DNA from: Phreatobacter sp.
Lineage (GTDB): Bacteria > Pseudomonadota > Alphaproteobacteria > Rhizobiales > Phreatobacteraceae
Direction: 5' to 3'
NCBI RefSeq assembly: GCF_030691135.1
Contig: NZ_JAUYFA010000076.1
Coordinates: 1-53,576 of the forward strand
Length of the DNA: 53,576 nt
Position 1 is the stretch's first letter, and each line of letters begins with the position of its first letter. The translations under genes and the position numbers were made by a program. Positions 32,131-32,913 of the stretch are shown here, piece by piece. The notes under the pieces are model-generated. The model searched no databases and had not been told where the DNA came from. It was given only the letters and a program-made list of their open reading frames with translations.

Positions 32131-32913
32131 TCAGACCTGACGCGCCACCATCATCTTCTTGATCTCGGCGATGGCCTTGGCCGGGTTCAGACCCTTCGGG
32201 CAGGCTTTCGAGCAGTTCATGATCGTGTGGCAGCGATAGAGGCGGAACGGGTCCTCGAGGTTGTCGAGGCGGTCGCCCGTGGCTTCGTCGCGCGAATCGA
32301 TCAGCCAGCGATAGGCCTGCAGCAGGATGGCGGGGCCGAGATAGCGGTCGCCGTTCCACCACTAGCTCGGGCATGAGGTCGAGCAGCAGGCGCAGAGAAT
32401 GCACTCGTAGAGACCGTCGAGCTTCTCGCGGTCCTCCTTCGACTGGCGCCACTCCTTCTCGGGGCGGGCGGTCGTCGTCTTGAGCCATGGCTCGATGGAG
32501 GCATGCTGGGCGTAGAACCGCGTCAGGTCGGGAATCAGATCCTTGACCACCGGCATGTGCGGCAGCGGGTAGATCTTCACCTGGCCGGCATTCACCTCAT
32601 CCATGCCCTTGGTACAGGCGAGCGTGTTGGTGCCGTCGATGTTCATGGCGCAGGAGCCGCAGATGCCCTCGCGGCAGGAGCGGCGGAAGGTCAGGGTCGG
32701 GTCGACCTTGTTCTTGATCCAGATGAGGCCGTCGAGAACCATCGGGCCGCAATCGTCGCGGTCGACGTAATAGGTGTCGATGCGCGGGTTGGCGCCGTCG
32801 TCCGGGTTCCAGCGGTAGATGCGGAACTCGCTCAGCCGGTTGGACCCGGGCGGCTTCGGCCAGGTCTTTCCCTCGGTGATCTTCGAGTTCTTCGGAAGCG
32901 TGAACTGAGCCAT
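32131..32913 (-). pseudogene. sdhB: Succinate dehydrogenase iron-sulfur subunit (SdhB), interrupted by one in-frame amber codon
   Basis: SdhB carries electrons from SdhA to quinone in respiratory complex II. Read through, the frame gives 260 residues, the normal length, with 2Fe-2S ligands C80, C85, C88 and C100, 4Fe-4S ligands starting C171-C174-C177, and the 3Fe-4S motif [15 protein letters not shown] near the end. Codon 184 is TAG (32364-32362) in ...[19 protein letters not shown]; SdhB proteins normally have Tyr there, so one base changed TAC to TAG. The remaining 76 codons are fully conserved, pointing to a very recent mutation or a base-calling error. As written, the product ends at residue 183, before the last clusters. 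sdhA, sdhC and sdhD are not adjacent. A TTGACA lies about 65 bp upstream. Confidence 0.9.

What the first reader, a model, noticed from the sequence alone, without database searches (positions are those of the whole stretch)
32362..32364. Single amber codon inside an otherwise intact sdhB
Codon 184 of 261 is TAG where SdhB has the Tyr of CPSYWWN. The 76 codons after it are fully conserved, including the 3Fe-4S cysteines, so nothing has decayed. This is a TAC to TAG change: a base-calling error, a very recent loss, or a site read through by a suppressor tRNA. A loss would break complex II in an aerobe unless another copy exists.
Basis: partly seen in the sequence, partly recalled or inferred. 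Interest (0 to 1): 0.8.

Follow-up and report, generated by a model that had tools for sequence, protein, structure and literature searches.

The report
Lone stop codon inside sdhB
One stop codon interrupts an otherwise well-kept respiratory gene in a draft genome of an environmental bacterium; no sign of a way to read through it was found, so it is most likely a wrong base in the assembly or a brand-new loss, and not a new mechanism.

Summary
On the minus strand, codon 184 of sdhB (32364..32362) is TAG; the remaining 76 codons to the natural stop are open and conserved. The genus is probably Phreatobacter. All 11 same-genus genomes searched, and 98 of 98 further loci, have a Tyr codon there. 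One sdhB was found in this genome; sdhC, sdhD and sdhA are intact on another contig. Suppression finds no support: none of 44 tRNA-family hits has anticodon CUA; the one tRNA-Tyr has GUA; no pyrrolysyl-tRNA synthetase matched; release factor 1 is present; TAG ends 112 of 813 long ORFs sampled; no RNA structure beyond chance follows the stop. Of 29 other candidate interruptions scanned in 1.48 Mb, none has a Pfam domain convincingly running across its stop, though 6 had no match at all. The gene shows no decay, so the change is at the tip of the tree. A consensus error (about 0.5) and a genuine, just-arisen loss (about 0.42) cannot be told apart without reads; readthrough is unlikely (about 0.04). 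Ordinary; low interest.

The parts
32362..32364 (-). in-frame TAG, codon 184 of sdhB, where relatives have the Tyr of CPSYWWN
32365..32913 (-). sdhB, 5' piece (183 codons): 2Fe-2S domain and the first cysteines of the dicluster domain
   Evidence: NF004616, 2.8e-72; Fer2_3, residues 30-134
32131..32361 (-). sdhB, 3' piece (76 codons plus natural stop): rest of the dicluster domain; its first start codon is an ATG at its codon 48
   Evidence: NF004616, 3.7e-36; start codons; Fer4_17, residues 170-243, runs across the stop

Best explanation
An isolated single-base change in the sequence record, most likely a wrong base in the consensus of this 116-contig draft (read error, or a minority-strain base taken up if the assembly comes from a mixture). 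The cell would then carry an ordinary Tyr codon and an ordinary complex II iron-sulfur subunit. Shown: the TAG, its absence from the relatives searched, the single copy found, the lack of decay, and no decoding apparatus found. Inferred: that the base is wrong rather than newly mutated.
For: Gene otherwise under normal constraint: the non-silent to silent codon ratio against relatives is 0.07-0.31 (codon 184 left out), against 0.00-0.32 (median 0.14, 55 pairs) among the relatives; besides the stop only 2 private amino acids, at 127 and 214. Only one sdhB found, with sdhC, sdhD and sdhA intact, so a real loss would remove complex II from what is presumably an aerobe (recalled for the genus). 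11 of 11 same-genus genomes without the stop; no other stop in the rows listed for 297 genomes of the order (288 of 297 have a match at E up to 1e-60, and the row table is cut short). Draft of 116 contigs, the smallest seen 1.6 kb, in which no 16S rRNA was found, as is common in metagenome-derived or short-read drafts (recalled).
Against: The rest of the window shows no other convincingly interrupted gene against up to three relatives: each of the 9 other flagged frames has its stop or frame break in an upstream extension, an antisense or shadow frame, or a C-terminal tail, so the draft does not look error-rich here. The 16S search also missed 5 of 14 control genomes and scored only 26 of 94 first-look candidates, so its silence says little. 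Whether the genome is an isolate or a MAG is not known. No reads were available.
Confidence: 0.5

Rival explanations
1. A genuine, very recent nonsense mutation: the sequenced strain makes a truncated 183-residue SdhB without the last cluster ligands and lacks working complex II.
For: No sign of high error elsewhere in the window. sdhB mutations recur in E. coli kept in long-term stationary culture, where the authors infer positive selection (PMC7858067, passages seen; the fixed allele named there, M107I, is a missense). A new mutation would leave the rest of the gene undecayed, as seen.
Against: Only copy found, with intact partner genes; no interrupted sdhB in 11 of 11 same-genus genomes or in the other listed rows (table cut short).
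Confidence: 0.42
2. Programmed or suppressor-mediated readthrough of UAG (Tyr or another residue inserted), giving full-length SdhB at a reduced level.
For: Conserved downstream codons and the lack of a second copy are what readthrough would need.
Against: 44 of 44 RF00005 hits read with ARAGORN, none CUA; the only Tyr tRNA found is GUA. No PylS match (of the 14 controls only Methanosarcina rings). RF1 above cut-off. TAG ends 112 of 813 long ORFs of the sample (ORFs picked by length and codon composition, not checked one by one). No structure after the stop beyond shuffles (z 0.94, 162 of 200 shuffles fold at least as well). The relatives do not share the codon. No other convincing conserved interruption among the 29 scanned.
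Confidence: 0.04
3. A split gene: two separately translated halves that assemble into one subunit.
For: Both pieces are conserved.
Against: No ATG, GTG or TTG before codon 48 of the 3' piece; the stop cuts through the dicluster domain, between cysteines of its clusters (cluster roles recalled); no same-genus genome has the split.
Confidence: 0.01

Closest known systems
Succinate dehydrogenase iron-sulfur subunit SdhB (NF004616 / TIGR00384)
   Same: Both pieces match consecutive stretches of the profile; 93-98% identical to the 11 same-genus copies.
   Different: Interrupted by one TAG at codon 184.
Isolated nonsense substitution or consensus error in a draft genome
   Same: Single base, single gene, not shared by relatives, no decay, no decoding system found.
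   Different: It sits in a single-copy core gene rather than a dispensable one.
Amber readthrough systems (pyrrolysine, suppressor tRNA, TAG reassignment)
   Same: In-frame TAG with conserved coding sequence after it.
   Different: No CUA tRNA and no PylS found, RF1 present, TAG used as a stop elsewhere, TAG not shared by relatives.

Membership tests
SdhB (intact, functional) | continuous open frame with 2Fe-2S domain and dicluster domain | tested here: not met
   Open only when the TAG is read as X; both domains are then present.
SdhB (by descent) | profile match and same place as relatives' sdhB | tested here: met
   the window lines up with G007, G001 and G002 around sdhB.
Suppressor tRNA | tRNA with anticodon CUA | tested here: not met
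   44 of 44 tRNA-family hits read, none CUA. A tRNA too odd for RF00005, or lost in an assembly gap, is not excluded; tRNA-Ala UGC was not found either.
Pyrrolysine insertion | pyrrolysyl-tRNA synthetase | tested here: not met
   TIGR03912: no match in the genome; rings in 1 of 14 controls, Methanosarcina.
TAG reassignment | loss of release factor 1 and recurrent in-frame TAG in conserved genes | tested here: not met
   prfA at C84 above cut-off; TAG ends 112 of 813 long ORFs; no other convincing case among 29 candidates scanned, 6 of them without any Pfam match.
Programmed stop-codon readthrough | stop conserved across relatives, stimulating element downstream | tested here: not met
   Tyr codon in 11 of 11 same-genus genomes; fold z-score 0.94.
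Sequencing or consensus error | reads disagree with the consensus | not testable with these tools
   No reads held.

The most novel reading that the evidence does not exclude
The TAG is real and is translated at a useful level by near-cognate decoding (for example by tRNA-Tyr GUA) without any dedicated suppressor, tuning complex II down in this strain.
Probability: 0.04. Interest if true: 0.7.

Novelty: not a real feature. Interest (0 to 1): 0.12.

Why it matters
As it stands it matters mainly as a caution: one base in a draft can make a core respiratory gene look lost. If reads upheld the stop, it would be a natural loss of complex II in an environmental bacterium, worth a growth test but of a known kind. 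Only proof of full-length SdhB from this allele would be surprising.

Tried and rejected
Second sdhB: none found (PF13085 over the genome; full protein). The six other PF13085 hits are partial, 29.3 bits or less; two of them pass the 27-bit cut-off, but none appears in the full-protein search. Pyrrolysine, suppressor tRNA, reassigned code: no support. Downstream stimulating structure: none.

Other broken genes in the window: the comparison flagged sdhB and 9 other frames. I looked at the alignments of all 9 (four, five): stops or frame breaks before the likely start (penicillin-binding protein, an acetyltransferase-like frame, a short frame that I recall as ribosomal protein L31, the OmpA-like frame at 26763, the murB-like frame, and the region before sdhB itself), antisense frames (near 17371 and 31473), or the C-terminal tail of folA.

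The private-codon count and the downstream start codons were read on the wrong strand for part of the loci and are void; one search replaces them (the sdhCDA frames, the ARAGORN tally and the CTAG count stand).

Interruption screen: the first version missed sdhB because of a tight-flank filter; one search uses a looser one and recovers it. One search flagged 123 stops: 91 with an ATG within 24 codons after the stop, read as neighbouring genes, of which I scanned 1 (L203) and left 90; and 32 without, sdhB included. Scanned by Pfam besides sdhB: 29 (28 of the other 31 without ATG, plus L203). Left unscanned of the 31: 3 (L187 near 5036, L224 near 12451, L250 near 16224). Of the 29, 6 had no Pfam match at 1e-5 and say nothing. 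None of the rest has a convincing domain across the stop; one weak FG-GAP match (L193) oversteps it by one residue. The screen needs open flanks of 40 codons and clear coding bias, so it will miss others. The sample is the window plus the first 20 kb (or less) of contigs 1-65 and 67-92: 92 stretches, 1,476,151 of 4,218,227 bases; contigs 93-116 and the rest of long contigs were not sampled.

Literature: 'Phreatobacter, genome' (70 papers, 15 listed), stop codons and sequencing errors (250 papers, 12 listed), sdhB nonsense mutations (23 papers, 12 listed). Seen beyond listings: passages of PMC7858067, abstract and outline of PMC6742797. I saw no report of this allele in these listings; I did not search further.

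Full report
What is there. The window is a whole contig, C66, of a 4,218,227-base draft in 116 contigs, 99.93% complete. Its relatives place it in Phreatobacter (Hyphomicrobiales): the best named sdhB matches are a 'Rhizobiales bacterium' MAG and a 'Phreatobacter sp.' MAG, and a same-genus genome whose contig is 4,974,952 bases (G006) has the size printed for Phreatobacter sp. NMCR1094 (PMC6742797, abstract). The genus name is thus inferred, not given. On the minus strand, 32913..32131 reads as sdhB with one internal TAG at 32364..32362, codon 184.

Is it sdhB, and is it otherwise whole? The two pieces match NF004616 at positions 5-161 and 163-237 of 238. Read with X at the stop, a dicluster domain runs across it (Fer4_17, residues 170-243). 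Against the 11 same-genus copies the first 183 codons show 25-42 silent and 2-15 non-silent differences, the last 76 codons 8-17 silent and 1-2 non-silent. Besides the stop, this copy has two private amino acids (127 and 214) and 8 private silent codons. The gene was under normal constraint until the stop appeared, so the change belongs to the very tip of this lineage or to the assembly.

Relatives. At codon 184, 8 of 11 same-genus genomes have TAC and 3 have TAT. In 98 of 98 further loci (18, 80; at least two of the 80 appear to be the same genomes as in the first set) the residue is Tyr: 73 TAC, 25 TAT. In a sample of 297 genomes of the order, 288 have an sdhB at E up to 1e-60; in the rows listed, which the tool cut short, only this genome has an internal stop.

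Other copies and partners. No second sdhB was found in the held genome. sdhC and sdhA are on contig C13 without internal stops, with sdhD between them. The window lines up with G007 along nearly its whole length and with G001 and G002 around sdhB, so the separate place of sdhB is normal in these genomes.

Could the stop be read? RF00005 finds 44 tRNAs; all 44 were read by ARAGORN, after fetching the 14 without a locus, and none has CUA; the one tRNA-Tyr has GUA. There is no PylS match. Release factor 1 is present. TAG ends 112 of 813 long ORFs in the sample. The 103 bases from the stop onward fold no better than shuffles (z 0.94). No ATG, GTG or TTG lies in the first 47 codons after the stop, which argues against a split gene.

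How common are such stops in this genome? A coding-frame screen of 1,476,151 bases flagged 123 stops between two coding stretches in one frame, 32 without an ATG within 24 codons, sdhB among them. I scanned 29 others against Pfam with sdhB as control: only sdhB has a domain that clearly runs across its stop; 6 of the 29 had no match; one weak FG-GAP match in L193 oversteps its stop by one residue. A transposase-like frame in L203 is possibly a second true interruption: its right-hand piece has a DDE domain, its left-hand piece no Pfam match. Three candidates without ATG and 90 of 91 with a downstream ATG were not scanned. In the window, comparison with up to three relatives shows no other convincingly broken gene: all 9 other flagged frames were looked at and explained.

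Verdict. The stop is in the record. It is single, private among the genomes searched, undecayed and without a decoding apparatus that I could find. That leaves a consensus error and a just-arisen loss of complex II; reads decide. I lean slightly to error, because the gene is a single-copy core gene with intact partners in a draft assembly, but the clean state of the rest of the window keeps a true mutation nearly as likely, and sdhB mutations recur in E. coli in long-term stationary culture (PMC7858067, passages).

Noticed in passing
window 41634-41970 (-): tmRNA gene, tag ANDNYAPVAVAA; the tool's asterisk I recall as its mark for the permuted, two-piece kind.
   Followed up: no
window 32131-32913; L182 10376-13062: sdhB lies away from sdhCDA (contig C13), next to hflC and hflK; the same neighbourhood lines up in G007, G001 and G002.
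   Followed up: partly
L203 8176-8796 (+): IS240-type transposase-like frame with an in-frame TGA before the DDE domain; possibly a decayed insertion element.
   Followed up: partly
window, whole: CTAG is very rare: 9 occurrences against about 162 expected from base composition; the in-frame stop lies in one of them.
   Followed up: no
G000, tRNA set and 16S search: No tRNA-Ala with anticodon UGC and no 16S rRNA were found, which suggests that the rRNA operon is missing from the draft (the 16S search also missed 5 of 14 controls).
   Followed up: partly
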